Shown in pieces: positions 39 to 45,949 of a stretch of 64,000 nt of DNA (its first letter is position 1; each line of letters begins with the position of its first letter). Made by a program: the position numbers and the translations under genes. The DNA comes from Glandiceps talaboti (lineage: Eukaryota; Hemichordata; Enteropneusta; Spengelidae). The DNA lies in NCBI RefSeq assembly GCF_964340395.1, contig NC_135564.1, forward strand, positions 2,073,501 to 2,137,500, written 5' to 3'. The notes beneath the pieces are model-generated. The model searched no databases. It was given only the letters and a program-made list of their open reading frames with translations, and was not told the DNA's origin.

Positions 39-202
39 CTCTTTGAGTTTTTCAACATCAATTGCCAATGCCTGGATGTCTTCTCCATCAATCACCTGTT
101 TTGGAGGAGGGGCCTGCTCTTCTTCCAGCTGAGACTGAGATAAGTTAGGACTGGTTGCCTTTTCTGGAGTGCCATCTCTTTTCTTGCCACCCTTCAACTT
201 GT
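39..202 (-). CDS. Shared coding exon of an unidentified gene with several alternative 5' exons (partial gene)
   Basis: Read on the - strand, this 164-nt exon follows a textbook acceptor: a TCTAAC-like branch site, a long CT-rich tract, then CTACAG at 203-208. It ends at GAG|GTGAGT (donor at 33-38). The first two bases (AC) complete a phase-1 codon; 54 codons follow and the exon ends in phase 0. The peptide starts KLKGGKKRDGTPEKATSP (basic, then Pro/Ser/Gln/Glu-rich) and finishes DIQALAIDVEKLKE, which looks like the beginning of an amphipathic or coiled-coil helix. All the ATG exons described upstream (3.5-32.4 kb) end in the phase this exon needs. The rest of the protein lies left of the window. 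I do not recognise the family; a cytoskeletal or scaffold protein is only a guess from composition. Confidence 0.82.
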
Positions 203-3200
203 CTGTAGATAGAGAAATAGAGAAAGATGTTAGATTTAGAACTTGACATCTATGTAACCTGTCCTCATTCACAGTCAATTGGGTCCAATAAAAGCAATAT
301 GTTGTTTTTTGTGGAATAACATGAGCTACATGTATCCTAGAATTCAAACATCATACTTATAGTTACATGTATTTTATACATATTTTTGTTAACTTGTGAT
401 GTTCTCAATTCAACACTGGTTTATAACTTTGGCTTTTTTCCATATAGTCAACTTTTTACAAGATTTATAGAGAATTTACAACTTTCTCTGAAATAAATAC
501 ATGATTTTGAATACAAAGATTTTGGAGTTGGTACAAAATGTGTAACATGTTACCTCCATAGAATTTCACTCTAGAAGGGAAAAACCAAAATGCCATGAAA
601 ACAACTTGGGACTTTCATATCTTACACATGAGTTTCATCTTCATTGTGAGACCAAAAGCCACACTTTTTGACCCCATCTTCTGTCAAAACGTATGAAATC
701 CGGGATAAGCACGGCAGCAAATCCTTGGAATTACTGGCATTGACAAATTACACTGAAATGTGTCAGATTGGAATGACTACCATGCTAATGATGATTGTTT
801 AAAAACAGCAGTTGCTATTTGAAGTAAATCTCAATCTATAGGCCATACAATGTTGATTTTTCGTTGTATGGATGGCGATAACCTCCAAAAGTTTACCCAT
901 TGAAAAAGTGAACAGTGTTTTAAGTTATCATAAGTAGAACTACAGTATTGGTATTCCTTAACCACATTTGGGTCTAGATTTTTTTATCAGGAATTCTGAC
1001 TTGTTTTATGGTTAAAATTGATACATTTCTGGATGACAAACCCATATAACAATAATTTTTCCAGAGTGGCTCGCATAAACACGATCAGTGTGCCAAAGGC
1101 AAAATGAAATGACATTTGCCTTCTTAGATATAGTTGCTGTAGCAGTGCATTGTTTCATTCTGTCTACTGTTTGCTATTGCTTTCAATTGGTCATGTTGAA
1201 TTAGCTGGTGTGTTTTAAATTGCATTACATGACACTGACAGAACACAATGCAAAAGAGAGAACTAGACACAGAACGTTAATGACGTTTATCCTTTGCTGT
1301 AAGTGGACATTACAAAGTGGCCTCGACAATAGACAAGCGTCTTTACTATTGTCAGAAAGTTGACACTGAAATATTTTCACGCTGATATCTTTTGGGGCTA
1401 AATTCTCGGTACTTGTGATCATTTTACATGCTAGAGGGTCAAAATAGCACAAGAAGATGGACAAAGTGCATATAACATGTAATGCACGTGTAGTATATTG
1501 TGGAGTGGAAGTCATGGTGTCAAGAAGTCGAATGACTGAGTGCCTATACATTTGTACATGTAGGTGGTGAAATTCTGTTTCCCAAATTGTGAATCACTCA
1601 GGATGAAAATGATGCTGTACTGGTTTCATAGGTCCCACTGGATGTTTTCACATGGATTATTTGACCAAAGTCTTGAACTATTGGTGTACATGTATGTGCT
1701 GTGAGATGTTCACAAGCTGGATGGAAAGCTGACTCAGACTGTTTGCTACTATGTGTACATGTTTGCTGGTTTCTGGAATCTTCTGACTACTTTGATATCT
1801 TCTAAACACTAAATTGAATGAGTTGAAAACAATGGTAATGTACATCTCATTTTATCTAGTGGGTGTATGGAAGTCGTCTCGCCCATGTGCTCTTCTTACC
1901 TAGCACAAAGAAAAGTACATCTTTCATGCAAAGACTGCTAATTTCCGTGAGTACCATTGAGATCTGTGGTATATCGAAGATTACATCCTTACTTTGTGTT
2001 GGACTAAGATATGAATTTTTCAGTTTGTGTAAAACAGCCCTATACACTTACCAGATGTAAAGAGTGATAGACATGTTGTTGAACATCACCAGTTCAGGTA
2101 AGACATGTGTTTCTTAATTCAAATCTAAGAATTTCAATTTTAAACATTAAAGTGAAATTATTATAAACAAACTTGTTATAACTACTGTATTACTAGGGTG
2201 ACTGACCAAACATTTTCATCAGCTTGATAGATCAAATGATTTACAAAGGCTGTAACACACAAGCAGTTCAAAGTTGTTTAGCATAGTTACTATGGTGACT
2301 GTTTCACCATTTCTCAGAGTCACATCCAAGACCCTTAGTCTATGATATCATTTTGAAATCTCATTTTGAGATTATAGAATTGAACATAACATGGTATACG
2401 TTGGACGTTCCATGAAGTCAAGATGACTGTTCTAACCTACCGGACTTTCATTTCTATGAACATTCATGAGTACCCTCAATGATGGAACATCTAACTCGGA
2501 CGCCTGGTTAACCACTTGGGGGTGTTTGAGGAAATAGTACAGACACTAGATTATATTTTATGTGTTTGAATCCTCAGTTAGTAGCATGCGTTCTGTATGT
2601 GCATTGTACATGTACATGCTGACTGTTAGATTGTATGTTATAGGTTATGTATTTGCACCCAAAAACATATTTCATTTTCAGAAGGTTTTTTTAGGAATAC
2701 AACAAAATATAATCTGTGTCTGAATATAGACTAGGATATCATCTGTATATAGTTCATGGATACTTCTCTGATTGGTATGGTATTCTCTAAACATACACAT
2801 CATTTGACTTATAGCATGACATGATGTGGTAAAGTAAATTGGTTTACATTCTGTCTGGTATATCAACTGGATAACACACGCTACATCACCATGGTCACCA
2901 TGGCCTGAGACCTGCATGCACCATTTAAAGACACTCTATAGAACATCTTGGCCACTTGGCCAACACAATCAGAATAAAATATCATTCACCAAGTTATTTT
3001 AAGTTGGTGCATATGGAAGAAAAAGAACAATTTCACAAAGTTACTTCATCACAATTTGAACATGATTCTGAATAGTTTTGGTTGTACATGTACCTGTGGC
3101 CGTTGTCTCAAATAGCCCCTACATGTATGCATTATATACCTGTACCTGTGGTCTCAAATACCCCCTACATGTATGCAGTATATACAGGTATAAATGGCCA

Positions 3201-3478
3201 TTTATTACAAATTAACGGCCTGCTGACAAAATGCAGTGAGTTTCCTCCCAGAGCAGAAACACTACTTTGTGAATAGGACATAGAGTCTGGAATAGACTAC
3301 AAGATATGTCATGTTGTTCAACCTTATCAGGCTTTTAAACCACTGGTTGACAGCAGTGTGAGTGCTGGTTGATAGCGCTGCACAAATGTCATACCTTTAT
3401 ACAGACTAAACCTGGAATTTGAATCTTTTGAGTTACACAACTCATTATGAATTAAAATTCAGTTTAAGTGATACATAC
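203..3478. other. Intron of the - strand gene, with old repeats
   Basis: No convincing coding exon apart from a weak candidate at 1900-1957 (see findings). It contains one copy of a three-copy dispersed repeat (1405-1580), a short segment shared with 35.84-35.91 kb (2225-2300), and a two-copy ~55-bp duplication at about 3082-3186 carrying CCTACATGTATGCA. The rest is AT-rich intron-like sequence. Confidence 0.6.
1405..1580. repeat. Dispersed repeat, copy 1 of 3
   Basis: Shares ATGCTAGAGGGTCAAAATAG, then GTGGAAGT.ATGGTGTCAA, then AGGTGGT.AAATTCT in order with segments at 14500-14715 and 36088-36290. Same order and orientation with moderate divergence indicates an old interspersed family of about 200 bp, probably a transposable-element relic. 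Confidence 0.55.
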
Positions 3479-3623
3479 TAGCTGATGATATGACGCGTAC
3501 AGCTGAACTCAATCTGGCTTTGGATTTCTTGGAGCTTCTTGAAGTACTTGTACTTGAGACCACCGAGGACTGTGACAATGGTCTCCTAGTTGGCGACTTG
3601 GGTTTACTTGTTCTGTCTTGCAT
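3479..3623 (-). CDS. Alternative first coding exon, Ser/Lys/Arg-rich (proximal)
   Basis: The ATG is at 3621-3623 on the - strand, with an in-frame TAA two codons upstream, so this must be a first coding exon. It encodes 48 residues plus one base. The peptide begins MQDRTSKPKSPTRRPLSQSS and continues with a serine run and basic clusters (RSSKKSKAR), a disordered, phosphorylatable N-terminus. The donor is GCTA|GTATGT (3473-3478). The last base A joins the AC of the shared exon to make Asn, so the reading continues ...ISSAN-KLKGG. There is no acceptor immediately 5' of the ATG. It is the closest well-supported first exon to the shared exon, and its product would lack the distal N-termini. Confidence 0.65.
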
Positions 3624-6600
3624 AGTTTAGTAGTCTATTACACAGTAGATATATCCAGTAGGAATGTGAAGTACACTTGAACTTGGTGATTTTCACTATC
3701 AGCAAATATGATCAGGAGATGTGTGAAATATCTGAGACTGTCAAGTAGGGATACACACAACTACAAGATCGGCCTTAATACTTCAACCAACGGGAGAAAA
3801 AAAGTCGCAAAGTTCAATTCTTCTTTACTGGATCTCAATTTTATGTGTTCCACCAGTCAAGTTATTTGTACGTCACATGTATCATTTCATATCCAGATAA
3901 ATTTCTATGTCAAATGTGAAATCTAAATCTCCGGCATAATCTGGTCACTGATACACAGCAACATATATAAAATCAACATAAGTGTCTCCCAACAGTTTTA
4001 TACCATGTATCTGTTCTTTAGACTCAGAGAGGTGTTATAAATTGACTTTTTATCTCCAGTTCATATACTTCACTTAGTTAATAAAGACAGGACTATCTCC
4101 GCATGGTTATTGCAATAGATTAATTCTATAGTCACGCTTGCAAACAAACAATATTCACACATACAGCTGAGTTGTTCATTTCTTGAACCACGCAATAACC
4201 GATATAGGTTTCTTCATTAATAATGATAATATGTATATATCATTGGAGTTCAACACAAGGTAAATTTCTGTCAATCACATGAAATAAGTGTCTAGTACTA
4301 GTAGTAGGTTTTGCCAATCCTGATCAAGTAGTAACAACGATAAACATCAATGAATTGAACAGTTTACAAACAAGATGTAGAAATCCTATTGTCACCCTTC
4401 ACTCTATGTTCTTCACACCTCTGTACTATCCTTCTCCAACAACAATACCACAGTTATCCCAGGTAAATAACCGGTCTTCTTCATAACACCAATGGATTTG
4501 GCAAATTAGTTGTCCCTAAGACTTCCCCGTTGGATTGAAATGCAGATGACCAAAGTGGCTCCAAACACTAGAAGGAGACCACTCCATTATAATCCGAGGG
4601 GTATCAATTCTCTAAATTGTTTAAAACAATTTTGCACAAACTATTTTCTTGCATTACACAGTAAATGAATTGTTGCCAACATGCTTCAATAAATGTCTGC
4701 ATTTCATAGAATAGTTTTCTTTGCTGTATGTTGGTTTGAAAAAGTTTTAAGAATGATGACCACCCCTAATTTCTGAATGGGCTGTCTTACGAAATCAAGT
4801 GAACTTGGTAACTAACATCAATATTCGTATTAGACACATCAAATATTGACCAAGTAATGCTGGGTAAGTTGATAATGTATAGTGATTAAATCTAATTGTT
4901 AGCCACCATGTGTTATATGGTTGACAAAATTCCAATATCAGGAAAAATAGTTTTACTATTACATGGTATATACACACAGACAAAACAACCAATGAATTTT
5001 CCAATCAACCAGAGATGTCGGTGATGTTAGGAGCATACATTTCTCAATCACTTTGAATGGTGTCACTCAATCGGAACAGCTTTACAGTTAATTGGAGTGG
5101 ATGGTGAAAAAGTTGTCAAATTAAATATTATTGTTACTCTCCATTCTTGCTATAGAATAACTATGCTGTAGGTAAATTGGACATGAACAATACCTGCTCT
5201 ACGTCATGTGACTTGTTTGTGTACATTTCATCAAGGAATTGAGTGGTTCCACACTTGCCAACAAAAAAGGGTGTGCAAACACCTGAAGCTGAGTATTACC
5301 TGTAGTCTTATCAGAGTAAAAGACCCAGTGAATCCTTACTGTCAACTTGGTACTGATTACAGGACTCTACTAAGTCTGATACCAAAACTATCGTGGTAAC
5401 CAATAACAACCAAACAACAACATCACTTCCTTCAGATATGGGAATCAACCAAACTCTTAGGATGCAACAAACATTATGGCAAAACTATGCAAAGAGTAAT
5501 TTTCCCAACCGTACACATTCATGACAAAACATTTTTTTTTACTTATTTTTTTTTAACCAATAACAACCTGTCAACAATATATACAGTACTTTGAACAATT
5601 TTTAATTCATGCCAAAAATGACATGTTGAAAACTATTCTAGAAACATACAGGTTTACTGGTTGAATCTGTGACTCCATAACTATTCTTGAATCAAAGAAT
5701 TGGTTAGTCTAGAGGCTATCTGTGGTTTTGGTTTGGAAGGAGAATCAAATCCATGGAGACTAAGCCTCCAGACATGAGACAAGAAATTGGCAAGTCGACA
5801 AAGAAAACAAGTACACTGACTGTACACTGGATTTGGAATCAGTCAGAAGATAACGAAAACAAGTACACTGTACACTGGATTTCAAAAATATACCATGGAA
5901 AAAAAGTAATTCAAAATTCAACATTTGACTTTGCCTTCTGTTAATCAATCAAACTGATTCTCCAGTTAACAGAAATAGTCCACAACTGACTACCAAAACT
6001 TTTTTGTCATAAAACTTGATATGCTTGTCCAGACAAGCTGAGGAATAATTTTTTTGTAAACTTTTGATTTTAAATAAATAACTTTACTCTCTTAATATCA
6101 TTGATTTCCCCAACAAAACTAAAAGTTATTATCACTCAAATGAAGTAATCAAGTTTCCAGAAATCATAAAAAATAACTTATTTGAAATAAACATTTTATA
6201 GATAATACCACCAAATATTCACAGTATCTTTTCTGAAATGCCATTATAATACCAAATAATGGATACCAATTCAAATGAATCCCTCCCCTTTCCTCCTTCC
6301 TTCCCTCCCCCTTAAATGATGAACCCACCCTAGTTCAACATACAACAGTCTAGTTGCCATGCATTACCAAGTCATTGTGTCTTTACTAGAAATACTACAC
6401 CTTTATTTGTACAAGTGTTGTAATCTGGTCATTTATGAGGTAGGTGAGTGACTTTAGCAGTGGTGACTTTTGTGATGGCACACATTGGGTGGTACAGAAT
6501 AGACTATCTATTATCCAGTCAGCTGTACCATGGAGAAATCCCTGACAGACAGGTATGTTATTGTAAAGGTCGAGATGATTGGACTAATACAGTAATCAAT

Positions 6601-7025
6601 AGTATTTAGGATTTGATAGAAACGATAAACCAAACAGTGACTTGGTAACAAAAACTTGCATTTAAGATTTTATCTACAAATGCGATATCTTATATGCTGA
6701 GCTTGAAACCTTGGAAATTACTTTAAACTTCAGGAAAAACACAAAAATAATTTCACTAACAGAAAACCAAAGATTTCAGAGGTACAAGAAACCCTAAAAT
6801 GTCTTATTTTTGAAACTGTAGAGTTGAACATTTAAATCCTGATAAAAATGTTGATGTTCAGAAGTGATAAATATTTACCAGATGTTATAACTTAAATTCC
6901 ACAAATGTTATTCTTTCTTTTCTTTACCAAATATGCAACTTATCTGACATAATAATGTGACATGTTTGTACAGATTGTGTTATTCTTAGGACTTACAGTA
7001 GTATTTAGAAATAGCGGCATTTGGA
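3624..7025. other. Intronic sequence without recognisable genes
   Basis: AT-rich. There is a short local duplication at about 5807-5882 (ACAAGTACACTG repeated) and a pyrimidine tract at about 6280-6315 (CCTTTCCTCCTTCCTTCCC). Open frames here are short and lack codon bias, splice context or homology that I can see. Confidence 0.55.
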
Positions 7026-8085
7026 GTAGTCTAGATGCCAATGTGGTCTGGAGGTGTAAATCGTAACAATACTGTATGGGAACTAGACTAGGATGTCAAC
7101 GTGGTCTAGAGGTGTTAAATCGTAACAATACTGTATGGGAACTAAACTAGGATGCCAACGTGCCGAGTCTAGAGGTGTTAAATCGTAACAATACCGTATA
7201 GGAACTAAACTAGGATGCCAACGTGCCGAGTCTAGAGGTGTTAAATCGTAACAATACCGTATAGGAACTAAACTAGGATGCCAACGTGCCGAGTCTAGAG
7301 GTGTTAAATCGTAACAATACTGTATAGGAACTTAACTAGGATGCCAATGTGCCGAGTCTAGAGGTGTTAAATCGTAACAATACTGTATAGGAACTTAACT
7401 AGGATGCCAATGTGCCGAGTCTAGAGGTGTTAAATCGTAACAATACCGTATAGGAACTAAACTAGGATGCCAACGTGCCGAGTCTAGAGGTGTTAAATCG
7501 TAACAATACCGTATAGGAACTAAACTAGGATGCCAACATGCCGAGTCTAGAGGTGTTAAATCGTAACAATACTGTATAGGAACTTAACTAGGATGCCAAT
7601 GTGCCGAGTCTAGAGGTGTTAAATCGTAACAATACTGTATAGGAACTTAACTAGGATGCCAACGTGGTTTGGAGGTGTTAAATCGTAACAATACCGTATA
7701 GGAACTAAACTAGGATGCCAACATGCCGAGTCTAGAGGTGTTAAATCGTAACAATACTGTATAGGAACTTAACTAGGATGCCAATGTGCCGAGTCTAGAG
7801 GTGTTAAATCGTAACAATACTGTATAGGAACTTAACTAGGATGCCAACGTGGTTTGGAGGTGTAAATTCTTACGATACCGTATAGGAACTTAACTAGGAT
7901 GCCAATGTGGTCTGGAGGTGTTAAATTGTAACAATACTGTATAGGAACTAGACAAGGATGTCAACTTGGTCTACAGCCTACAGGTGTAAATTGTAACGAT
8001 ATTACCATATAGGAACTTAACTAGGATGCAAACATGGTTTGGAGGTGTAAATTGTTACGATACCGTATAGGAACTAGACTATATT
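7026..8085. repeat. Minisatellite array, ~63-bp unit, about 17 copies
   Basis: Unit core is TAGAGGTGTTAAATCGTAAC followed by AATACYGTATAGGAACTAAA and a CTAGGATGCCAACGTG stretch. Units with GCCGAG are 63 bp; edge units with GGT in place of GCCGAG are shorter. The centre (about 7140-7850) is nearly homogeneous and both edges are diverged, as expected from unequal exchange. A lone related piece lies outside the array at about 8370-8410, within a segment that also has a CTCTAGTCCCTATGC-type end, so the unit may derive from the end of a transposable element. Confidence 0.9.
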
Positions 8086-11617: not shown

Positions 11618-11678
11618 CGTCAGAGCCACTGTGACTATGGCGACTTGACTCGACTGTGCTAGGCGTCCTCCGTAACAT
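11618..11678 (-). CDS. Alternative first (or alternative 5') coding exon, 20 residues
   Basis: ATG at 11676-11678, 20 codons plus one base, and a donor at GACG|GTAATT. The peptide is MLRRTPSTVESSRHSHSGSD: Ser/His/Arg-rich, CpG-containing and unlike the surrounding AT-rich sequence. The last base G plus AC of the shared exon gives Asp. Ten bases 5' of the ATG is TTTTTGCAG, a plausible acceptor, so the exon may be preceded by a noncoding 5' exon; the frame is open across those ten bases if entered in phase 2. It cannot be entered in phase 1 and leave in phase 1, so it is not a simple cassette between the other first exons. Confidence 0.5.
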
Positions 11679-15385: not shown

Positions 15386-17726
15386 TTGTTGTGCGTCAGT
15401 GACAAGTCAAAGTGGTTGAGGAGGCACACTGGTCAGTGATATGTCGAAGTGGCTGAGAAGGTACACTGGTCAGTGACATGTCAAAGTGACTGAGAAGGTA
15501 CACTGGTCAGTGACATGTCAAAGTGGCTGAGAAGGTACACTGGTCAGTGACATGTCAAAGTGGCTGAGAAGGCACACTGGTCAGTGACATGTCAAAGTGG
15601 CTGAGAAGGCACACTGGTCAGTGACATGTCAAAGTGGCTGAGAAGGTACACTGGTCAGTGATATGTCAAATTGGCTGAGAAGGTACACTGGTCAGTGACA
15701 TGTCAAATTAGCTGAGAAGGTACACTGGTCAGTGACATGTCAAATTGGCTGAGAAGGTACACTGGTCAGTGACATGTCAAAGTGGCTGAGAAGGTACACT
15801 GGTCAGTGGCATGTCAAAGTGGCTGAGAAGGCACACTGGTCAGTGGCATGTCAAAGTGGTTGAGAAGGTACACTGGTCAGTGACATGTCAAAGTGGCTGA
15901 GAAGGTACACTGGTCAGTGATATGTCAAAGTGGTTGAGAAGGTACACTGGTCAGTGACATGTCAAATTGGCTGAGAAGGTACACTGGTCAGTGACATGTC
16001 AAATTGGCTGAGAAGGTACACTGGTCAGTGACATGTCAAATTGGCTGAGAAGGTACACTGGTCAGTGATATGTCAAAGTGGCTGAGAAGGTACACTGGTC
16101 AGTGACATGTCAAATTGGCTGAGAAGGAACACTGGTCAGTGACATGTCAAATTGGCTGAGAAGGTACACTGGTCAGTGACATGTCAAAGTAGCTGAGAAG
16201 GTACACTGGTCAGTGATATGTCAAAGTAGCTGAGAAGATACACTGGTCAGTGACATGTCAAAGTGGCTGAGAAGGTACACTGGTCAGTGACATGTCAAAT
16301 TGGCTGAGAAGGTACACTGGTCAGTGACATGTCAAAGTGGCTGAGAAGGCACGCTGGTCAGTGACATGTCAAAGTGGTTGAGAAGGTACACTGGTCAGTG
16401 ATATGTCAAATTGGCTGAGAAGGTACACTGGTCAGTGACATGTCAAAGTGGCTGAGAAGTTACACTGGTCAGTGACATGTCAAAGTGGCTGAGAAGGCAC
16501 GCTGGTCAGTGACATGTCAAAGTGGTTGAGAAGGTACACTGGTCAGTGACATGTCAAATTGGCTGAGAAGGCACACTGGTCAGTGGCATGTCAAATTGGC
16601 TGAGAAGGTACACTGGTCAGTGACATGTCAAATTGGCTGAGAAGGCACACTGGTCAGTGGCATGTCAAATTGGCTGAGAAGGTACACTGGTCAGTGACAT
16701 GTCAAATTGGCTGAGAAGGTACACTGGTCAGTGACATGTCAAATTGGCTGAGAAGGTACACTGGTCAGTGACATGTCAAAGTGGCTGAGAAGGTACACTG
16801 GTCAGTGACATGTCAAATTGGCTGAGAAGGTACACTGGTCAGTGACATGTCAAAGTGGCTGAGAAGGCACGCTGGTCAGTGACATGTCAAAGTGGTTGAG
16901 AAGGTACACTGGTCAGTGACATGTCAAATTGGCTGAGAAGGCACACTGGTCAGTGATATGTCAAATTGGCTGAGAAGGTACACTGGTCAGTAACATGTCA
17001 AATTGGCTGAGAAGGTACACTGGTCAGTAACATGTCAAATTGGCTGAGAAGGTACACTGGTCAGTGACATGTCAAATTAGCTGAGAAGGTACACTGGTCA
17101 GTAACATGTCAAATTGACTGAGAAGGCACACTGCTCAGTGATATGTCAAAGTGGCTGAGAGGGCACACTGGTCAGTGGCATGTCAAATTGGCTGAGAAGG
17201 CACACTGGTCAGTGACATGTCAAAGTGGCTGAGAAGGTACACTGGTCAGTGACATGTCAAATTAGCTGAGAAGGTACACTGGTCAGTAACATGTCAAATT
17301 GACTGAGAAGGCACACTGCTCAGTGATATGTCAAAGTGGCTGAGAGGGCACACTGGTCAGTGACATGTCAAAGTGGCTGAGAAGGCACACTGGTCAGTGA
17401 TATGTCAAAGTGGCTGAGAAGGTACACTGGTCAGTGACATGTCAAATTGGCTGGAAAGATACACTGGTCAGTGACATGTCAAAGTGGCTGAGAAGTTACA
17501 CTGGTCAGTGACATGTCAAAGTGGCTGAGAAGTTACACTGGTCAGTGACATGTCAAATTGGCTGAGAAGGTACACTGGTCAGTGACATGTCAAAGTGGCT
17601 GAGAAGGTACACTGGTCAGTGACATGTCAAATTAGCTGAGAAGGTACACTGGTCAGTGACATGTCAAATTGGCTGAGAAGGTACACTGGTCAGTGACATG
17701 TCAAATTGGCTGAGAAGGTACACTGA
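15386..17726. repeat. Satellite-like array, 37-bp unit, about 63 copies
   Basis: Unit: ACTGGTCAGTGACATGTCAA + AKTGGCTGAGAAGGTAC. The unit contains the perfect 10-bp palindrome TGACATGTCA. The main variant classes are AAAGTGG/AAATTGG, GTAC/GCAC and GACATG/GATATG/GGCATG. Length is constant at 37, so spacing stays exact over 2.3 kb. Higher-order copying is visible: a rare block (GTAACATG...TTGACTG...CTGCTCAG...GAGAGGG) occurs at 17101 and again at 17286, exactly five units apart; a CACGCTGG variant recurs at 16350, 16498 and 16868, at multiples of 37. Noncoding; inside an intron of the - strand gene. Confidence 0.95.
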
Positions 17727-18731: not shown

Positions 18732-18993
18732 TAAGAAGTGTGATGCCACGGATCTTTTTCCAAGGTGTAGAACCACGACTGCTGCCAGTGCTTCGTTCTG
18801 AAATTGATGCTTTTCTAGTCATGCTTAATCTCCTAGGTGATTTACTGCCAGGTGATTTTGGTGGCGATTTAGCACTTGGTTTACGTGCTGCAGTGTTCTT
18901 GTTTTCTTCGGAACGCTGTTTTTCAGATGGGTCATCATTGCTTGAATCATCGTCAGTTTCAGTGCCAGGAATTTGTAAACGTACCCGCCACAT
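18732..18993 (-). CDS. Alternative first coding exon, longest, acidic then basic Ser/Pro-rich
   Basis: ATG at 18991-18993; 87 codons plus one base; donor CTTCTTA|GTATGT (18726-18731). The last base A plus AC of the shared exon gives Asn (...GITLLN-KLKGG). The peptide opens MWRVRLQIPGTETDDDSSND, has an acidic/Ser patch (about residues 11-25), then a basic Ser-Pro segment with SAKSPPKSPGSKSPRR (about residues 39-54) and RRLSMTRKAS (about 53-62), which contains an RxxS-type basophilic kinase site, and ends WKKIRGITLL. The CG-containing codons and low-complexity but protein-like composition separate it from its AT-rich surroundings. This is the strongest of the 5' exons. Function unknown; a regulatory, disordered N-terminus is inferred. 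Confidence 0.72.
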
Positions 18994-21900
18994 TTTTGCT
19001 ATTTTTTTAAGTTTGTCGATTCTAAATGTTATACTTGATGTAATTTAGAAGTGATGAAGTAATGTGGCAAAAGAGATATATAATTCATGATCCGTGTCAC
19101 AAAGAAGAAAAACATCGACACATCATCCTTGTTTTATATTTCAGCAAGTTGCTAGGCAACAAAGTATCATCCATTCCTCCTTCCTCGAAGACATGCTCAT
19201 CACATATCAATCATATGATCACTTTGTGTTCCATTCTCGCAAGCCAGGGCACATTTTACCAGTGATGCAACAATGCGACGTCTGTTTAATGCTGTCATAA
19301 AGAGGTGGTTTATGAAGATGTTTGCATTCAGTGTGAGTTGGTTTAAAGTCTTTAAAAAGTTAACGTTACGGGTTTAAATGAGTCCGACACACTTCACACG
19401 ATCTGATACAGTGACATACCTAGAACACAGTATCTTGTTTTACAGGTATATAACAATACATTGTGTCATCTCACTGTAGAACATATTCACAACATGAGGA
19501 ATATCACAGGTACTGCCTTGGTATAGTTTAGTACAACTAAATTCTGATGATAACACTTCACAGTATATTCACATCACACAACATGTACGTATCCACATTC
19601 TTCACCCAGTGACATTTCCTCCGATTTGGGCTATAATTTCCTGGCGACACACATCCTTTCACAACTGACACTTTTTCATATTATTACTATGACAACAATA
19701 GATGGATCGTTCTATTTTGATAATAGGGATAGCAGCATCTCTGGCACAATAAGGAATGACAGAAAACCTCTGCATACTACCCTTCTTCAAATAGATGAGT
19801 CTGAATTAATTGCATTATCTGTGGATTATAATTAACTGGTACATTTTTTCTGCTCAAGTAGTGAATGTGGCTTGTCTGTATTTGTTGTTTATTATCTTTT
19901 TAGTTATTTGGGGCATTGAGTACAGTAAGCAAATAAAATGTACCAGCATTCTCAAAGTATTCTCAGTTCAACTAGACATTACCCAATTCTTAAGCTTTCT
20001 GTTAACAAAATATACAATGTAGCTAGAACTTGTAATGTTATATTTGCCGGTAAAACACAAATTACAAGCAATCAACATTATTATGAATTTGACCACACAT
20101 TATCTACTCAATTTGATTAGCTTTGTCCCTAGAGAAATTAAAATATCAATTTCAAAACAGCTTAATTTGTTCCTCCAGAAATTACTGCAAATGAATTGCA
20201 TCACAATTTGGCAATTTGTTAATGAGAAAAATATATTTAGAAATGTTAGGAAAACAGTTAGGGTGACTCTTCAGTCACGGCGGTAACAACAACACTTGTT
20301 CATGAACAGAGCATTCCTTTCATGATGGAAGTTATTCAAGTAGTGGGGCTGAGAATATGCCATTGTGTAGAGAAGTTGGGAAAGGTCTTGTTACCAGGAA
20401 TCCAATAAAAAGAAGATAGAGAGGAGGAAAAGGAGAGGCAGAGAAATATGAAGAAGATGATTTTTATTTTTTTACTTTTTCTTTAAATTGACTGGCTGAC
20501 TCATAGTTGCTATGAAAAAGTAATGAGAAACATAAATATCAAGATTTGACTAAAAAAACAAAATAGCACTTGTTTTTGCAGTATTAATGAACATTTCATT
20601 ATCAAAGAATTGAATTTTCTGTTTCGTAACTTGTGACATTGTCCACCTATTTCCTGATTAAAATTGTTGAGGGTATATTATGAATCACACAGTCAACTAT
20701 GCAAAGTAAATGTGATGGCTGCATCAATACCTGTAGGGTTTTGTCACCTGACACTACATGTACATTTAATGGAATTTAATATGTGTACACAGGGTGTTAC
20801 AAAAATATTATTTCTAATCCCTTGTTATTCGTAATAAAAATGAAATATTGATCTGTGTTAATAGTGACTGTACCATTAAGCGAAACGTTTTGGACAATAA
20901 ATGTAACATGCTTGAAGGAAAACTACATGCATGTGAGTGGCTTGATGATCCAGTTTATAGCCCCTGGATATGTATTGATAATGGTAATATTAACATTAGG
21001 CACATATTATGACAGAAAATCATGAAGTGTGAGTGCCAGTATGGCATACACAGGTGTTTGCAGGAGTGCCCATAGTGTTTTCTGTGGTTGTACTTTCATG
21101 AGCATAGTGAGTGAAAGTGCTGCAGAAAACACAGCAAGCACAAGAGCAATACCTCAATTCCCCACTCTGGTACTTCGATGTGATGGGGTTCTGTTTTTAT
21201 CACATACATGTATTATCAAAAACAGCATTTCATAAAAAGTGCAACTGTGTGTTCATGTAGTTTCATGTACATGGAATGATCATACACTCAGCTGCATACA
21301 GGTATGTGGTATAGTAATTGATTTGGGTTATGCATGCAGTGAGTGCAAATTACACCACTGGTATGCAAGCCCAGGCAATCATTCAATTTATACATACAAA
21401 CTATGTAATAACACACCATAGGAGATGATTTAGGTGAAATCATATTATTTGTCATTTACAAGTACCAGTTGTTGTATTATCATCTATTGTCTGCATAATG
21501 ATAGGAGGGAAATTGGAACGATGAAGATTAGTAGTCAGCTTGTTAGGAATGGCTGCTGTGTGATAAATAGTAAAACTTGTATATAGTAATTATATACATC
21601 TGGTACACCAATATCACCTGTCAATCTGATAATATTATGAGTATTATATTATCAAATATGTTTTGAATTGTTATACTTTCATAACTGTAGCTAATCAATG
21701 TATATTTTTCAATTGGCTTCATGATGCTCTATTATTGGGTGAAAGCTTGTCAGTGCTTTTGGAAACCCTTAGAGTTGAGTTTAGTTTAGACTACATTGTT
21801 TGTATTCAGATTTCATTTGTGTTTTTGTAACTCCAAAGTTTAAGTTAAAAGCCTGGGTTTCATTTTCAATTCCAGATTCTTGCACTAGTATTGTCCTATC

Positions 21901-24465: not shown

Positions 24466-27130
24466 ATGTCATTTAACAGATAAACTACATTTGTAGGATG
24501 TCACAATTATCTTTATGTTGTAACTCAATAAAATTTATGCTAAATTAGTAAAAGAATGTGTGAAATAAAATCCTGACATGGTACATGTTAGTCATGTATG
24601 CAGCTAAATAATTCTTTTCAATTTGTTTATCATAAGATACAATTTTATGTAAAGTAGTGTAATAATTTACTTGTATAAAATTAATACTTTAGGTTTTGCT
24701 TTCCAAACGCAATTTTATCGAACTATAAGTCACAGCAGAGCGAATCATACATACATGTAGCCAATAGGTTATCTCTACATATTATGTTATCTTTTGCTTC
24801 ATGGAGTCCAAATAGCTGAGAAAATACAGGCATTGACACTATTCAAACATGTATGACATTTTACGAAATAAAGTGACATGATGTTGACCCAGAAATAATG
24901 ACGATTGGGATAAAAATATCTAACATAATGAAATGGAACAGAAAATGTCAATTTCTTTGCGGTAAGCTATTGTATTTATATACCTGGTATTAAAGTGTAC
25001 ACAGAAGCACTAATATACATGCATTAATAATACTAGTGATAGGGACTCGACCTGAGGGACACTTTGTCAAATTTGACATAAAGTACTCAGACATATATGT
25101 AAATTGTAATACGACTAGAATTAGTAAAATGATACATACAGATAGTGTTCATTGCATACTTTCTATTTCTCCTGAAGTTTTATAAAGTTTCAAATGTCAA
25201 TAACGGTACATGTTCATTTTGTATAAATCAATGATGTTATGTATTTAGGCCAGGGTAACATAAGACACTGTTGTACTACATCGACTGTTACTTTTCGTTG
25301 TCATGAAAAGGAAGCACTTTTTTATAGCAAAGTAAGAATTTCATTTATTTTACCTGGCAAATTATATCCACATAGAAAAACAAAATGGGACTGCTTTTTC
25401 CAAAAGATTTATTGCTAAAATAACTCTTTCTAGCATCAATATTAACGAAATGATTTTCTTTTCCAAATTATCTTAAAACATCTAATGTTGTTATTTATCA
25501 CACAAACAACAAAAGTGAATGGCTGTGAATTACAGTAAATAGACTTGTAATATTATCTTATCTCTGAAGAAACAGTTAGTTACTACCGGTAACACACTTT
25601 TATGTTGTCTATTCAAGTTGGGTGTATCATCTCATAGACTAGATTATAATTATAGTTGTCAAGTTGCTATGGTAACCATGAAGTATGCCGAGTCTGAGAG
25701 AGATAGCACTTTAAGTTAATGAGCATTCTTCAAATGGAATGATGGAGAACTGCTCTTCATTACTTGGACTTTTTTTAGATTATTGGCTGACTGATGAATT
25801 ATTAATGAAAAGTTTAGGATGAAACCATTCAGTGCAAGGGATGAAGACATAGGAGGGGTATCTCAATTCAAGAACTGAAAGACAGTCTTAGACACCATAT
25901 AATTTTGCAGTATAGTATTACATACATGTATATTTAACATATTATAAAATTAAATTAAATTTTGTAAGCATTTTTAATAAGACAACAGGACAATCGCACA
26001 ATTTCATTTACGCTCAATAACTGAACTTCGTTCGTTTAGTGGAGGGGATCTTGTGGCACTGTGTTTGCTGAACTTCATTGTTGCACTTCTAACCAAAACT
26101 TTCACACTTTCAATAAGAAAACTTTCTGTATTTACTACTGAGATGATACATTGATTAGAATTTATTGCTAATGTGATATACAGGGCTGGGTTTCTGGTTT
26201 GTATTTTAATGTGTATACCATATTTCTACATTGTATCGAATGTAGCAGTGGTACGATACAGTTTTCACCATGGTTTACATCATATGTCAATGTCGCACTT
26301 GTGAACGTTCGTTTAGGGGAAGGGGCTTTTGGCTTACATGAACAAAGTTCGTTTTTTGAGCTTGTGCGACATTGAGCGATTATCCCTAAAGAAACAACTA
26401 TATGACTGGGTGACTGTATAGTATTATCACAATATATGACATGTTTGCATGAATCAGTATTAAACTGTTTGACTACCAATAGCATCCTCAAACTTACAGC
26501 ACAGAATAGATTTTCTTTTCCGTTAATTCTTAACAGCACAGATACTGGAGAACCAATTACGACAAAACAGTAATCCCATTTAGCTTTTAAGTAGACAGAC
26601 AGATTTCCACTTCGTTAAAGTCGACATGGTCTACATACAAATGATTGCCATGAAAAACACACACAAATATTCACTTCAAAGAGTCAGTACAGTACATGTC
26701 TGTGAGGGCGCTATTTACAAAGAGGTTTCTTATCACACCTCTGTATCACAATCTGACTCACATGGTCTACACATGTCTGTCGTACATTACTGCCATGAGA
26801 GAGAAGCAAGCAAAGATTCATTATGAAGATAGTACATGGTCTCACGAGGGCGCTGTTTACAAATACGTTTCTTATTGTATTACTATATTACAATTTCATA
26901 TCATGGAGTCACATGACCTGGTCAATATATCAAACACAATAAATCACTAAAAACTTTGATCTATACTGGTTACTATGTACTACACTAACTAACAACTTCA
27001 TATATGACATTGTCTTGTCTAAATTATCAACAATACACACATAAATGAACACAAATCAAACAGTGAACATGATCAAACTAAACCTGTCCATACTTGTCTC
27101 ATATCCTCTAGAAATCAATGTGATACTTAC
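24466..27130. other. Intronic sequence with two repeat segments
   Basis: Contains a dispersed repeat (26060-26390, related to 45985-46330) and a diverged direct duplication at about 26690-26880. In that duplication GAGGGCGCTATTTACAAA and GAGGGCGCTGTTTACAAA each start a ~140-bp copy followed by a GTTTCTTAT word. No exon seen until 27131. Confidence 0.5.
26060..26390. repeat. Dispersed repeat, copy A (paired with 45985-46330)
   Basis: GCTGGGTTTCTGGT, AGTTTTCACCATGGTTTACAT, TGTGAACGTTCGTTTAG, GAGCTTGTGCGACATTG occur in the same order and spacing as GCTGGGTTTCTGGT, AGTTTTCATCATAGTTTACAT, TGTGAACGTTCGTTTAG, GAGCTTGTGCAACATTG at 46.1-46.3 kb. Same orientation, roughly 330 bp, unknown family. Confidence 0.75.
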
Positions 27131-27146
27131 AACTTAAGTTCGCCAT
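27131..27146 (-). CDS. Possible alternative 5' coding exon (tentative)
   Basis: Minimal reading: ATG at 27144-27146 encodes MANLS plus one base, with a perfect donor T|GTAAGT (27125-27130). The last base T plus AC of the shared exon gives Tyr. A protein-like open frame continues 5' of the ATG (about 22 more codons reading ...YRLKFAWVEKDLEL-MANLS) back to a TGA near 27220. A TTACTTATAG acceptor-like site near 27183 would enter it in phase 2. So this is either a very short first exon or the end of a longer alternative 5' exon entered in phase 2. The donor and outgoing phase are the support; the 5' boundary is unresolved. Confidence 0.35.
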
Positions 27147-29113
27147 CAGTTCTAAATCTTTCTCTACCCAGGCAAATTTGAGTCTATAAGTAAAGTTGTG
27201 CACATAATAGCCCAGACAGAGTCACAGTGTACGGAGACTTTTAACATGTAATTGTTTGGCGAACTGAGGTAGCAAAATCAAACAAAATTTTGGGTGGTCA
27301 GAACCCTGTTTTACTTGTGTCTTTATACGAAACAAACTCTGGCAACTGAAAAGACAAAACTGGCTAGAATTTCTGACTAATTTCGTACCTATTAAAGCAA
27401 GAAAAAAATTCAAACTAATAAAATTCCAATCCTTAGAAACCGAAGTTTCTGGTCCCCCTGTCAAATTGAAAGTCTGCAAAAGCAGAATACCAGGAACATG
27501 TAAAACCCATACATACACACAATGTCATTCACTAATTAACATTCACCAACAGGTCATCAGAAATAAAGTATAACTGTTTTGCATTCTTTTCAAGGCTTTC
27601 CATACTAATTATATTTTGATAGCAAGCCCTCACTTCACAACAAACATCACATGTATATGCTGCAAGCCTTCAGTTGATATAAGACACAATGTATTTGCAG
27701 TGCACAATTAGTGTATTTACTGTTGCTTTTCAAAAGTTTACAGAAGTCCTTTCATATAAAATAAACAAGTTCGTATATCCATGCTTGGACACACAACAGC
27801 ACATGTGATTCTGTGAATGTTTCACCACTCTACAAGTATACAGTTGTAGTACTTGTACTATTCATAAACCATGGGGTGGGACGGAAGAGAAGGTCTCCAA
27901 GTACAATTAAGTTTAGGTGAAGTATAATTAACAGACTTTCAAAATATGAACATCAAAAGTTTTATTTGAATTGGCAATTCTCACACGACAGAGCATATTT
28001 TTTTGGTGAAATGACAACAAAATAGAGATGCCATGTTGTATAATTTTAGTCTAGTAATTATATGCGGTCATTTTCTATGATCTCTCTCTCTTTCTCTATG
28101 GAGGGATATTAGCACACATAGTTACTAGTTTAGTACAACGGCCACAAAAAGGCCTGAAGATTGCCATAAGTTTAGTGTTATATATCAAAAACAGAGAGTA
28201 AACTCTCTAAGGACAGTCTGACACTCCACTTTCCAAAACTATTTTTTCAATTGAAGTCTCAAGCCAGTACACAATAACTCATAAAACTTTGTACTTGGCT
28301 ACCACTAATAAAATGTGATTACAATGTGTATTTAATCAACAATTGTGAACACCTGTGGAATTAAATCTGCGAAAACTATACTGACAAAAATTGTGATTAA
28401 TGAAAAAAGATTTATTCCTGGATACAAACCTGACAAAATTTGTTATCACATATATGAGAAATGAAATTTAGATTATACTGTATCAAAAACAAAAAACAAA
28501 ATGTTGCTATGAATCGTTTCATAATGCCATTGTCATGACATTGTAATAGTTAACAAACAATTTGGGCTCTCAGGATAGGATTAACCTAAGTCCTTCAAAT
28601 CATACAATAAATCCTAAATCACATCAAGTCAAACTACACATCTTACCTACCAACTCATGTAGACAGGCATGCACATTTATTTAATACTAATATAACACTA
28701 TTTCAATTCAGTTCACACACTTTAGTACTACAGAAACTAAGTATTATAAATACAATTCAAATAAGTGGCCTTGCCAACAAAAAAAGGTGTCCATTCAACT
28801 CAGCTATGTAATATTCTGAGGTGGTTAAAGTTTTATAAAATAATGGTAAACATATGTAGTTTGAGAATTAAATCGTAAACCTCTACTAAAAAACAGTCTT
28901 AAATTAAATCAAGAACTAATTTAACAAATAGTTAAGTTTTCAGACAATTTCTTTTACAAGATTGTGAATATTCAAGTACAATTTTCTTGCGTGTTTTCCG
29001 CTGAGTGTGAAAACTTTGTTTATACTACAGCAGTAACAGTGACCATGTTGTCAAAAGAATTCCAATAAAGATAACAAACTTATAAGAGTCACAAATCTTT
29101 CAAAGACACTTAC
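27147..29113. other. Intronic sequence, nothing specific seen
   Basis: AT-rich. A frame at 27222-27518 (- strand) has no supported splice sites, and a (CTCT)-rich stretch lies at 28080-28100. I see no exon with a phase-1 donor. Confidence 0.45.
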
Positions 29114-29189
29114 TAATGAGAGCCTGTGTTTTACCAATTTCAGCTACTGCAGCAATGGCAGATTTCAGCTTGAGAGCAGCCAAAGACAT
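29114..29189 (-). CDS. Alternative first coding exon, 25 residues, Ala-rich helix
   Basis: ATG at 29187-29189, with an in-frame TAA four codons upstream, so this is a first coding exon unless an acceptor (CTAATCTAG) abuts the ATG. It has 25 codons plus one base. The peptide MSLAALKLKSAIAAVAEIGK + TQALI is unlike the other N-termini: an amphipathic, Ala/Leu/Lys helix without Ser clusters. Donor ATTA|GTAAGT (29108-29113). Last base A plus AC gives Asn. It lies only about 440 bp from the next first exon at 29632, a tight pair within the cluster. Confidence 0.62.
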
Positions 29190-29631
29190 GATGCTAGATT
29201 AGTTTAGTATCACAGAATACCTGGTTCCTTGTACCTGTGTGTTTTTACGGTAACCAATAGCAACCTCAAGAATTCTACACTAGAGAACACTTGTCTTACT
29301 CTCTAGTATACGACTAGTCAGATTACCAGCATGTCATGCTTCACCTGTTCTGGTGAAAAAGTTTGAACGGAACGGATACCACTTGAACTGAGAAAATGAT
29401 ATCACTTACAGGTGATAATACACCACCATGGCACCACAAAACAAGTGCTCTTGTTTCTCAACTATTTTTATAACCAAGTCTGTGAAAAACAAGATCTTTG
29501 CCCACAACACCACTCAACCTATGACAGTCTACTCATCAACCTTCTGTTGCCAACAGTCAAAAATCTAAGGTAAGACAAAACATTGATAGCTAAAATATAC
29601 GATATTGGTCTGTCTATCATGAAAACCTTAC
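29190..29631. other. Spacer between two closely placed first exons
   Basis: About 440 bp, the 5' flank of the 29.19-kb exon and so a likely promoter region. No obvious core promoter element recognised. Confidence 0.4.
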
Positions 29632-29746
29632 CTTCTTGGATAATATCCAAAGGTAGTATACTTTTTCGTCTCTTTTGATTTAGTTCTCTAAATTTATGTA
29701 TATCCTTTAGTCCAGTGAGAGAGCTTCGACGGCGACCCGTGTCCAT
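29632..29746 (-). CDS. Alternative first coding exon, 38 residues, Arg/Lys-rich
   Basis: ATG at 29744-29746, 38 codons plus one base, donor CAAGAAG|GTAAGG (29626-29631). The peptide begins MDTGRRRSSLTGLKDIHKFR and contains a second basic-Ser site (QKRRKSIL), then ends DIIQE; G plus AC of the shared exon gives Asp. RRRSS and KRRKS both fit basophilic kinase (PKA-like) sites, as does RRLS in the 18.9-kb exon. Upstream the frame is closed by a TAA within the word TATAAA. That word lies about 30 bp 5' of the ATG, so it could be a TATA box giving a very short leader. Confidence 0.68.
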
Positions 29747-32317
29747 CCTAGTTACAGCAGTAATGATGTGCGTTTATATGTGTATCTGGCTTTTGTGACT
29801 GATTTAATGAACTGTTTACTTAAGATCTCTGAATAGCTCATGAGTATTGGCGATGTTTGTCAAATAGTTATACCTCCCATTCAGGTCACACTTGTTGTTC
29901 ACAAATCATTTACTCAGTTCCCCGAGCATAGAAGTATGAAGGGAGGAGTATTTATTGCAAATCAAATAGTCTAGTCGTTTGTTAGCAACCAATGTAGCAT
30001 GTTCTGTGTTGAGTTCGGTTTCTGCAGAAACCCCGGAACTTTGGACCTCTTGACATTCACAATTGTACAAGGTAAGAATATTGATGATGATGTTAGATAT
30101 GTTTGGAGGTTGTCTTGCATAGAAAGGAAATAAAGACATGGACGTCATGACAATTACAACTTAATGGGGTCAGAGGTCATAGCATACACCATGTGACCAT
30201 CAAACATTTCATAAGTGACTTTAAGTGATTTGATGCATTATACATGTGTAGCTTGCCACAGCTTAGAGATTACTGACAATGGATGTAAAGAAATGCAAAC
30301 AACATTAAATATACGTGAAAGAAATGAAATTACCCCAACTGCACAACTGAGCAGCTGGTATTGAAGGAATTCCACTATAGACTTAAACTGCTTGTTGTTA
30401 CTCGACAGCAGTGACCTTTTTGCAAGAAGTGGAAAATTATTTGAACGCTCAGTCACGAATGGAATCTCAGTTGAATATAGATGTATTCAGATAGGACAAG
30501 AAAGTGTCAAGATAGGGATTTTATGTTTTCCTATGTCAAAGGTCATATCCAGTACATCCCGTCTTTGATTCGCTGTTTACAAACACAGCCTTCATTAGGT
30601 GTAGCCATTGCTATGGCAACAACCTGTGTCTTGAGATATAGATAAGGCTGTAGATGACACATATATAGCAATTAGATACTCCATCTATGAAACAGCATTC
30701 TTGTTTAAGGGAAAGTTTATCCACATTGTTACAATAAAATAAATGATTGAGTCACAGACCCAATATGATAGGATATGAAAGAATAACATCACATGAAAAT
30801 TAGATATTCTGAAATCTTTGAAATAGCAGTATATTTCTTCTGCCAAATTCTGGGGAAAGTTGATCAACAATGAAGACCGTTTGGGAAATTACACATATGA
30901 ACTACATGTAAAATTAAAGGGGAACAGTACTTTAGGACATTATGGCATTTTTGTCAACTTTGGGTTCTTGAGAATAATTTCATGATTTCACATCCCAAAT
31001 ATTTCATGCAATCGCTAAGAAACACAAATAAAACTTGTTTTTATATTCATTGTTGTAGCAGTGGTCCAGTGTTGCCTCATGGGAGTCAGCAGACATGCTG
31101 ATATATGCATTGGATGAACAATAAATATTGATGACTCCTAAGTTCTTATTACTGTCAGTTCAGATAAATATACGTACTCATGAATATTTACTGTTTCAAA
31201 GACTTTCACAGGTAGAAATGATTGGGTCTTAGTAAATTACAGAACATGAAACTTGAAAGAACCAATTGAACACACCCTGCATGTGGAAAAATCATAATGT
31301 TGACACACAACTGCATTATAAAGTGCTCAAACAATTACTTCCCTTTGCCCTCCCCCCTCCCCACCAACCTGATCATGATTGAGTATTTGCCGAGCTCCCA
31401 GAAATTTAGTTATCTGAAAAGAAACACTAACACACACTACATGCCTTGAGAGTTCATGTTCTTTTAGTCCCATTTTCTTTTTGTAGACTTAATTTTTGTT
31501 CTACCATTTCACAGGGTTGGGCGCCAAAGGAAGCTTTGTCAATTTCTTATAATAAATAAATATCTTACAAGTGAAGAAAATGAAACATTCTGGTGATGTG
31601 TACAACATAACACGTATGTATGAATTGGAAAAAGAAATTATTACAGAAAGTATTATGTAAAGTTTCAAAGATATCCTTGTGATTAACTTTAGATGAATGT
31701 GCAACTTGATGTAATTCAGCACTCTCATATATAGCCTGAAATGGAGTGAACACTCTTGAATGGAGAAGGAATATACTGTTGTAAATGTACAATGCAACGT
31801 ACTTCATGTACCGTGACAGTTACAACTTATACAAGACACTGGTTCAGTGATTCAATACTGTACTGTGTACAACTATTCTATTTGACGATCATGGATCAAA
31901 TCAAACTGGTGACATTTTAAAAGAGTTTAGGAGTATATGTGCTTGATTGAAATATTATGATGATCAAATAACCAGTTGTCACAACTATCACAGCATGTCA
32001 TTTACGTTCTTTCAATAAAACTTGTTACAAGCTCTGTTGTAAAGATTAACATTTTCGGCCCATGGCATTGATGTCGTGGACAACATTCACTGATGGCCCC
32101 ATGTTAAAACCATGTGAAAGTGACAAATAACATTACAGGGTGATGGTTAAATGCGAATGGATACCGTTTACAAGTGGTACAATACTATAATTGGTATATT
32201 TTACGTGTAAAACAAGAACTTCAGGCATCACACCTGTCAAAAATAAACATAACAGTTTACAAACCCAAGTCATTCAAATAATAAGGCGGACAATTTGCTA
32301 AATTTACAAAAACTAAC
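29747..32317. other. Intronic sequence with no supported exon
   Basis: A frame at 30330-30456 (- strand) starts with ATG and reads like protein for about 40 codons, but its only donor-like site (GGG|GTAATT) is in phase 0, so it cannot join the shared exon in frame. The rest is AT-rich. Confidence 0.45.
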
Positions 32318-32372
32318 CGGTTGATTTGGGACGATCTTTCTTTGATGGTTTGCTGCTGAGTTTGGTACTCAT
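32318..32372 (-). CDS. Most distal alternative first coding exon, 18 residues
   Basis: ATG at 32370-32372 with an in-frame TAA eight codons upstream, so a first coding exon. It encodes MSTKLSSKPSKKDRPKST plus one base; donor ACCG|GTTAGT (32312-32317). G plus AC of the shared exon gives Asp (...KSTD-KLKGG). The peptide is strongly basic and Ser/Thr-rich. A short upstream ORF (MATVVVD, ATG at 32457-32459) precedes it and could lower translation. It is the promoter end of the - strand unit, head to head with PEMT. Confidence 0.66.

Positions 32373-45903: not shown

Positions 45904-45949
<46 letters not shown>

What the first reader, a model, noticed from the sequence alone, without database searches (positions are those of the whole stretch)
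39..32372. A 32-kb cluster of phase-matched alternative first exons feeding one shared exon
Seven short ATG-bearing - strand exons (at 3.5, 11.6, 18.9, 27.1, 29.2, 29.7, 32.4 kb) each end at a donor after exactly 3n+1 coding bases. The shared exon at 39-202 needs a phase-1 partner. The outgoing base changes the junction residue (Asn, Asp or Tyr), but every join stays in frame. At least four (3.6, 29.2, 29.7, 32.4 kb) have an in-frame stop just upstream, so they are first coding exons and not serial cassettes. By chance only about one third would have the right phase. The N-termini are unrelated to each other: basic/Ser-rich, acidic then Ser-Pro-rich, or an Ala-rich helix. This implies combinatorial promoter choice giving one protein body many regulatory heads, similar in layout to UGT1A or protocadherin clusters but in a gene I cannot identify.
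Basis: partly seen in the sequence, partly recalled or inferred. Interest (0 to 1): 0.86.

Follow-up and report, generated by a model that had tools for sequence, protein, structure and literature searches.

The report
Several alternative starts for MYCBPAP gene
In what looks like an acorn-worm genome, the gene for a motile-cilium protein (MYCBPAP) appears to have several widely spaced alternative first exons that give the same protein body different short, flexible N-terminal tails.

Summary
The shared exon (39-202, - strand) is exon 2 of MYCBPAP (FAP147), a protein of the C2a projection of motile cilia. Further MYCBPAP exons follow collinearly just left of the window (Pfam PF14646, E down to 2.5e-24). 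A Saccoglossus gene model has a head clearly orthologous to the window's 18.9-kb exon, running straight into the shared exon. A scan in all phases for head-like peptides nevertheless singles out 18.9, 3.5 and 32.4 kb. Part of this weakens under stricter filters. I accept 3.5, 18.9 and 32.4 kb; rate 11.6, 29.7 and a new head at 26.0 kb probable, 29.2 and 40.9 kb uncertain; and reject 27.1 kb. The 32.4-kb exon shares a CpG island with PEMT and is the likely default start. There is no RNA evidence. The kind of arrangement is known; the number of heads is notable.

The parts
39..202 (-). Shared exon = MYCBPAP exon 2 (54 codons plus 2 nt; entered in phase 1, left in phase 0)
   Evidence: homologs in Saccoglossus, Owenia and vertebrate MYCBPAP
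3479..3623 (-). First exon 3.5: MQDRTSKPKSP...VISSA, donor CTA|GTATGT; accepted
   Evidence: composition 27.8, reached by 1 of 1012 control ORFs; ties with the shared exon for second-lowest hydrophobic count; CpG peak at 3741, though the fixed -400..+100 window is unremarkable (0.41); A at -3
11618..11678 (-). Candidate first exon 11.6: MLRRTPSTVESSRHSHSGSD, donor ACG|GTAATT; probable
   Evidence: composition reached by 4 to 16 of 1012 control ORFs by training set; phase 1 among scores of 5 or more; CpG peak 0.72; A at -3
18732..18993 (-). First exon 18.9: MWRVRLQIPG...WKKIRGITLL, donor TTA|GTATGT; best supported
   Evidence: Saccoglossus P0001 has the orthologous head joined directly to the shared exon
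19148..19160 (-). X-box-like site GTTGCCTAGCAAC, 155 nt upstream of the 18.9 ATG
   Evidence: 4 such exact sites in the 64-kb window, 14 in 183 kb of control
26012..26078 (-).
   Evidence: composition reached by 3 to 8 of 1012 control ORFs by training set; phase 1; CpG peak 0.86 at 25901; A at -3
27131..27146 (-).
   Evidence: 5 residues, C at -3, no CpG peak
29114..29189 (-). Candidate first exon 29.2: MSLAALKLKSAIAAVAEIGKTQALI, donor TTA|GTAAGT; undecided
   Evidence: A at -3; composition 4.8-5.8 with phase-1 donors but best in phase 2 in two runs; codon test p 0.003; no CpG peak
29632..29746 (-). Candidate first exon 29.7: MDTGRRRSSLTGLKDIHKF...LDIIQE, donor AAG|GTAAGG; probable
32318..32372 (-). 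First exon 32.4: MSTKLSSKPSKKDRPKST, donor CCG|GTTAGT; accepted, likely default start
   Evidence: composition 14.8, reached by 2 of 1012 control ORFs; strongest CpG island; A at -3
32001..33250 (.). CpG island between the MYCBPAP 32.4 exon (-) and PEMT (+): possible bidirectional promoter
   Evidence: CpG o/e up to 1.15 against a region mean of 0.32
40851..40923 (-). Weak extra candidate head 40.9: MSKKLAPRSALLSASKKLSTTNLF, probably antisense inside a PEMT intron; uncertain
   Evidence: (4 to 16 of 1012 controls reach it); no CpG peak
34346..34429 (+). Probable first coding exon of the neighbouring gene PEMT: MEALINWTDPNLFYSAALIVFKPFYWHG
   Evidence: weak tblastn match (E 0.91) to a recalled human PEMT, plus ATG, acceptor and GTAAGT donor

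Best explanation
The minus-strand gene is MYCBPAP (FAP147), a structural protein of the C2a projection of the central pair in motile cilia. It has a phase-1 intron after a variable first coding exon. Three first exons (32.4, 18.9 and 3.5 kb), and probably about three more (29.7, 26.0, 11.6 kb), each with its own promoter, splice to the single acceptor at position 202. Every head ends after 3n+1 bases, so each gives the same MYCBPAP body with a different short, flexible tail. Shown here: gene identity; direct 18.9-to-shared joining in the Saccoglossus gene model; a statistical excess of phase-1, head-like, A(-3) starts, and their coincidence with CpG peaks. Inferred: the 32.4-kb exon is the default start, driven by a CpG island shared with PEMT; the 18.9-kb start is cilium-programme driven (X-box 155 nt upstream); choice is by promoter; the intron is ancient; the tails tune phosphorylation or docking of the MYCBPAP N-terminus, the part reported to bind CCDC108.
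For: Saccoglossus LOC102808588: 71% identity over a 62-residue stretch that holds nearly all of the shared exon, head orthologous to 18.9 (local score 193 against a shuffle mean of 42.7, 0 of 2000 shuffles). Profile hits to vertebrate MYCBPAP: 16 of 58 entries bear that name, E 8.8e-7 to 3.4. Further exons collinear in L002, PF14646 at 5.8e-23, 3.9e-15 and 2.5e-24. Composition: 18.9, 3.5 and 32.4 are the top three minus-strand heads in three training sets that exclude Saccoglossus. Phase: 7 of 7 heads scoring 5 or more and 14 of the top 15 are phase 1, against 27 of 80 control ORFs at -2.5 or more and 0 of 20000 bootstraps. A at -3 in 8 of 8 kept or uncertain heads, background 0.272. X-box.
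Against: No RNA data. The Saccoglossus record is a single gene model and shows only one head. With a stricter donor filter (4 or more of 6 positions) 18.9 and 3.5 themselves drop out, the phase excess is p 0.045, and p 0.50 once that list's own top three (32.4, 11.6, 40.9) are removed. The CpG test on the six weaker heads alone gives p 0.08, and in a fixed -400..+100 window the 3.5, 29.2 and 40.9 heads are unremarkable (0.41, 0.21, 0.25). A synonymous-codon test found nothing for 18.9 or for most heads. Six of seven donors are mediocre, including the ortholog-supported one. X-box-like sites are about as frequent in control DNA.
Confidence: 0.7

Rival explanations
1. MYCBPAP has only one or two real first exons (18.9, perhaps also 32.4 kb); all other heads are chance ATG-to-GT stretches in a long first intron.
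For: Phases are even over minus-strand candidates; ATG ORFs with a usable donor are common (97 in 203-33000 at score 0 or more); Saccoglossus shows one head; with donor match 4 or more no excess remains once that list's top three are removed (p 0.50).
Against: The 3.5 peptide is as extreme as the two exons confirmed by homology; bootstrap phase excess for ranks 4-15, 0 of 20000; A at -3 in all eight heads kept or left open; CpG peaks at 3.5, 11.6, 26.0 and 29.7 kb.
Confidence: 0.2
2. Some heads are 5' exons of other transcripts (antisense or long non-coding RNA from the CpG islands of the PEMT-MYCBPAP region) or are joined serially within one long 5' leader.
For: 40.9 probably lies antisense in a PEMT intron, and CpG peaks at 35.8 and 24.6 kb have no matching head.
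Confidence: 0.07

Closest known systems
MYCBPAP / FAP147 (AMAP-1), Pfam PF14646
   Same: Shared exon and the downstream exons found; GEDIQALAI-type motif; short basic Ser/Lys-rich N-terminus ahead of it in Owenia and several vertebrates
   Different: Several candidate first exons over 30 kb; the listings show no paper on such a layout for MYCBPAP (one search listed 25 of 70 papers; only the papers named in this report were opened)
SPAG16, a central-apparatus gene with alternative promoters giving Spag16L and Spag16S (PMC5282894, start of abstract seen in the listing)
   Same: Ciliary central-apparatus gene with transcript forms from alternative promoters
   Different: Two major transcript forms there; here several heads on one body
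UGT1A and clustered protocadherins (recalled)
   Same: Layout: variable first exons feeding one common acceptor
   Different: There (recalled) the variable exons are large, duplicated from each other and encode whole domains; here the heads are 18-87 residues and show no clear mutual similarity

Membership tests
MYCBPAP (PF14646) | PF14646 domain in the same gene | tested here: met
   three of four exons tested left of the window at 5.8e-23, 3.9e-15 and 2.5e-24 (gathering score 24.5 bits, matches 82, 56.2 and 86.5); the fourth, N-terminal to the domain, gave no family
MYCBPAP (PF14646) | N-terminal GEDIQALAI-type motif ahead of the domain, with collinear exons | tested here: met
MYCBPAP (PF14646) | Product is in the C2a projection of motile cilia | not testable with these tools
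   mouse data only: PMC13345628, abstract, passages and section 8 seen
Alternative-first-exon gene (general) | Two or more first coding exons spliced to one acceptor in transcripts | not testable with these tools
   no RNA; one junction supported by an ortholog model
Alternative-first-exon gene (general) | A separate promoter for each first exon | tested here: inconclusive
   CpG peaks at six heads; exact X-box-like sites upstream of 18.9 and, within 272 nt, of 29.7
UGT1A / protocadherin-type cluster | Variable exons are duplicates of one another | tested here: not met
   28 pairs of eight heads, lowest shuffle p 0.0295, none significant after allowing for 28 comparisons

The most novel reading that the evidence does not exclude
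One structural gene of the ciliary central apparatus carries six or more promoters, each adding a different tail (two with basophilic kinase-like sites), so that different ciliated cell types or sperm build chemically distinct C2a projections from one gene.
Probability: 0.25. Interest if true: 0.65.

Novelty: new member of a known kind. Interest (0 to 1): 0.42.

Why it matters
Motile cilia differ between tissues although their central apparatus is largely built from the same genes (general knowledge). A MYCBPAP gene with interchangeable N-termini on the end reported to bind CCDC108 would be a direct route to cell-type-specific ciliary architecture, and easy to test with capped RNA. It also gives a homology-backed case in which intron phase lets unrelated first exons be recruited to one gene.

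Tried and rejected
Uninformative: the synonymous-codon test, since the supported 18.9 exon scored p 0.41 (29.2 gave p 0.003, one of eight tests). No result: Pfam on the shared exon and heads; Pfam on six homologs (no hit reaching a cut-off); PDB; Rfam and ARAGORN on the window; paper searches for the motif EDIQALAI, MYCBPAP + isoform + first exon, and X-box + RFX + Foxj1 + MYCBPAP. (hemichordate genome, methylation) were background listings; none of those papers was opened.

Choices made along the way: the composition score was trained on heads of other species. I tried four training sets, two rules for choosing the donor and two donor filters, and the favourable phase counts are those of one training set without Saccoglossus and the looser filter; with two other sets 29.2 comes out in phase 2. 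Tandem repeats were masked; 17,110 N lie in the control DNA. The CpG pattern was seen before it was tested. The protein search scored only the 7988 candidates sharing most words.
Full report
What the gene is. The shared exon at 39-202 (-) is a clean internal exon: acceptor CTACAG|AC, donor GAG|GTGAGT, 54 codons plus two bases, open only if entered in phase 1. A protein search with the 3.5-kb head plus shared exon found two relatives: a 171-residue Saccoglossus kowalevskii protein (LOC102808588) and an unnamed contig (2 proteins at E 10 or less among 16 candidates). A second search with their alignment added an Owenia protein and others (15 at E 10 or less among 3145 candidates). A third, padded with X to a longer length, reached vertebrate MYCBPAP: 16 of its 58 entries bear that name, best E 8.8e-7, worst 3.4 (only the 7988 candidates sharing most words were scored). 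The window lies at G000:C17:2073501-2137500 of a 590-Mb assembly, so I fetched DNA to its left. There further MYCBPAP exons follow in order on the same strand, with PF14646 in three of four exons tested at 5.8e-23, 3.9e-15 and 2.5e-24. The matched body spans about 6 kb, the candidate first-exon region about 30 to 40 kb.

What MYCBPAP does. In mouse it is one of three mutually dependent proteins of the C2a projection of the ciliary central apparatus, and its N-terminus binds CCDC108 (PMC13345628; abstract, passages and section 8 seen). The algal counterpart FAP147 is listed in a table of a Chlamydomonas flagellar phosphoproteomics study (PMC3536430, one passage) and as a human-conserved C2 protein called AMAP-1 (PMC7999657, one passage).

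The observation as stated. All seven ATG-to-donor pieces exist. The argument that 3n+1 endings are improbable does not hold: on the minus strand from 203 to 33000, ATG ORFs with a donor score of 2 or more divide 11/14/13 over phases 1/0/2, and at 3 or more 8/8/8. Short ORFs with a usable GT are plentiful, and a donor of the wanted phase can be picked. The donor matrix uses recalled textbook frequencies. The 27.1-kb head is only MANLS.

The 18.9-kb head is supported by an ortholog. The Saccoglossus protein starts MWKLLQVPT and ends its head SSRGSTPWKKIRGITLI, then runs into NKLKGAKKKDGTPEK. The window's 18.9 exon starts MWRVRLQIPG and ends SSRGSTPWKKIRGITLL, then joins NKLKGGKKRDGTPEK at donor TTA|GTATGT. 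Alignment score 193, shuffle mean 42.7, 0 of 2000 shuffles. It is a database gene model, not a read. The next exon boundary agrees as well: the shared exon ends in phase 0 and exon 3 opens with IHQPKPPSAERRRTP, as Saccoglossus has VHIPKPPSAERRRTP.

Which other heads are real. I scored every first-ATG ORF with a donor, in all phases, by amino-acid log-odds trained only on MYCBPAP heads of other species. Against 1012 such ORFs from 20 stretches of 10 kb elsewhere on the chromosome, 18.9 scores 43.6, 3.5 scores 27.8 and 32.4 scores 14.8; 0, 1 and 2 control ORFs reach them, and those two controls are a Thr/Ser-rich repeated frame and an Arg-Glu dinucleotide repeat. The same three lead the minus strand when Saccoglossus is left out of training and with vertebrate-only or non-vertebrate-only training. 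The weaker heads are less clear: 11.6 is reached by 4 to 16 of 1012 controls, 26.0 by 3 to 8, 40.9 by 4 to 16, by training set, and 29.7 is unremarkable. Of 7874 overlapping stop-free 40-residue stretches outside repeats, the three least hydrophobic places, after merging overlaps, are the 18.9 exon, the shared exon and the 3.5 exon.

Phase, tested without choosing it. On the minus strand from 0.2 to 45 kb (repeats masked), 7 of 7 heads scoring 5 or more are phase 1 (18.9, 3.5, 32.4, 26.0, 11.6, 40.9, 29.2), 9 of 9 at 0 or more, and 14 of 15 at -2.5 or more. The plus strand of the same stretch gives 0 heads at 5 or more and 5 of 10 at -2.5 or more; the controls give 2 of 8 and 27 of 80. No bootstrap of 20000 pseudo-strands reached 14 of 15, nor 11 of 12 for ranks 4-15. 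Against this: with a donor filter of 4 of 6 positions, 18.9 and 3.5 drop out, the excess is p 0.045, and p 0.50 once that list's top three (32.4, 11.6, 40.9) are removed; and with two other training sets 29.2 is best in phase 2. So the wider excess depends on admitting weak donors, which the ortholog-supported 18.9 donor also is.

Start context and CpG. All eight of 3.5, 11.6, 18.9, 26.0, 29.2, 29.7, 32.4 and 40.9 have A at -3, against 0.272 of 762 first ATGs on that strand; 27.1 has C. The sequence is CpG-poor (o/e about 0.32), and six of its nine highest CpG peaks between 0.2 and 45 kb fall at the 32.4, 18.9, 26.0, 29.7, 3.5 and 11.6 heads. Of the other three, that at 31.8 kb reaches the 32.4 exon and those at 35.8 and 24.6 kb have no head. 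An exact X-box-like site lies 155 nt upstream of 18.9; such sites occur 14 times in 183 kb of control, so this is only suggestive.

Neighbour. PEMT lies on the plus strand, with exons matched at about 46.6 to 50.1 kb (E 4.9e-5 to 4.2e-14). A probable first coding exon is 34346-34429; its match is weak (E 0.91) but it has an ATG, an acceptor and a GTAAGT donor. The strongest CpG island, 32.0-33.2 kb, would then lie between PEMT and the 32.4-kb head, which suggests a bidirectional promoter and makes 32.4 the likely default start of MYCBPAP (inference). Its peptide MSTKLSSKPSKKDRPKST resembles the short basic or Ser-rich starts of Owenia and of several unnamed relatives, but gave no significant similarity to the Owenia or vertebrate heads tested.

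Mechanism. The intron phase may be old: in six of 14 relatives aligned (P0002-P0005, P0008, P0010) the residue at this junction reads Asp after what look like translated intron ends, as expected for a phase-1 AG|AY acceptor (inference from protein letters only). 3.5, 18.9 and 32.4 are low in hydrophobic residues and rich in Ser, Lys and Arg; 18.9 and 29.7 hold three basophilic kinase-like motifs each, and 3.5, 11.6, 29.2 and 32.4 none. The likely effect is a change of a flexible, phosphorylatable tail on the end reported to bind CCDC108; this step is untested.

Verdict. Accepted: 3.5, 18.9, 32.4. Probable: 11.6, 26.0 (new), 29.7. Uncertain: 29.2, 40.9. Rejected: 27.1. The heads show no clear similarity to each other (28 pairs, lowest p 0.0295). 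The gene is known, and alternative first exons are a known kind of arrangement; a central-apparatus gene with alternative promoters, SPAG16, is in print (PMC5282894, start of abstract in the listing). The number of heads on one ciliary structural protein is the notable part. My paper searches (listings, showing 25 of 70) did not show it described.

Noticed in passing
34346-50062 (+): PEMT gene: exons near 46.6-46.7, 47.9-48.0, 48.8-48.9 and 49.9-50.1 kb (E 4.9e-5 to 4.2e-14) and a probable first coding exon at 34346-34429 (E 0.91), head-to-head with MYCBPAP.
   Followed up: partly
   Followed up: yes
35821-36320; 24621-25120: CpG peaks (o/e 0.77 and 0.70) with no matching head or known exon.
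   Followed up: no
15395-17725; 59193-61734; 61998-63116; 7046-8081: Large tandem arrays inside or near the genes: 37-bp x 63, 67-bp x 37.9, a 69/133-bp array and 63-bp x 16.7; the last is CpG-rich (o/e up to 1.1).
   Followed up: no
P0001 (Saccoglossus kowalevskii, not in window): The database model ends at 171 residues, shortly after the part matching exon 3, so it may be a truncated model or short isoform of MYCBPAP.
   Followed up: partly
P0047 and P0061 (salmonid proteins, not in window): Two fish entries share PEKKRLKVSEDFSS but have unrelated N-termini before it, hinting at variable MYCBPAP first exons in vertebrates too.
   Followed up: no
32450-32464 (-): CCAACATGGCGACTG about 80 nt upstream of the 32.4 ATG resembles a YY1-type core-promoter element (motif recalled, not tested).
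   Followed up: no
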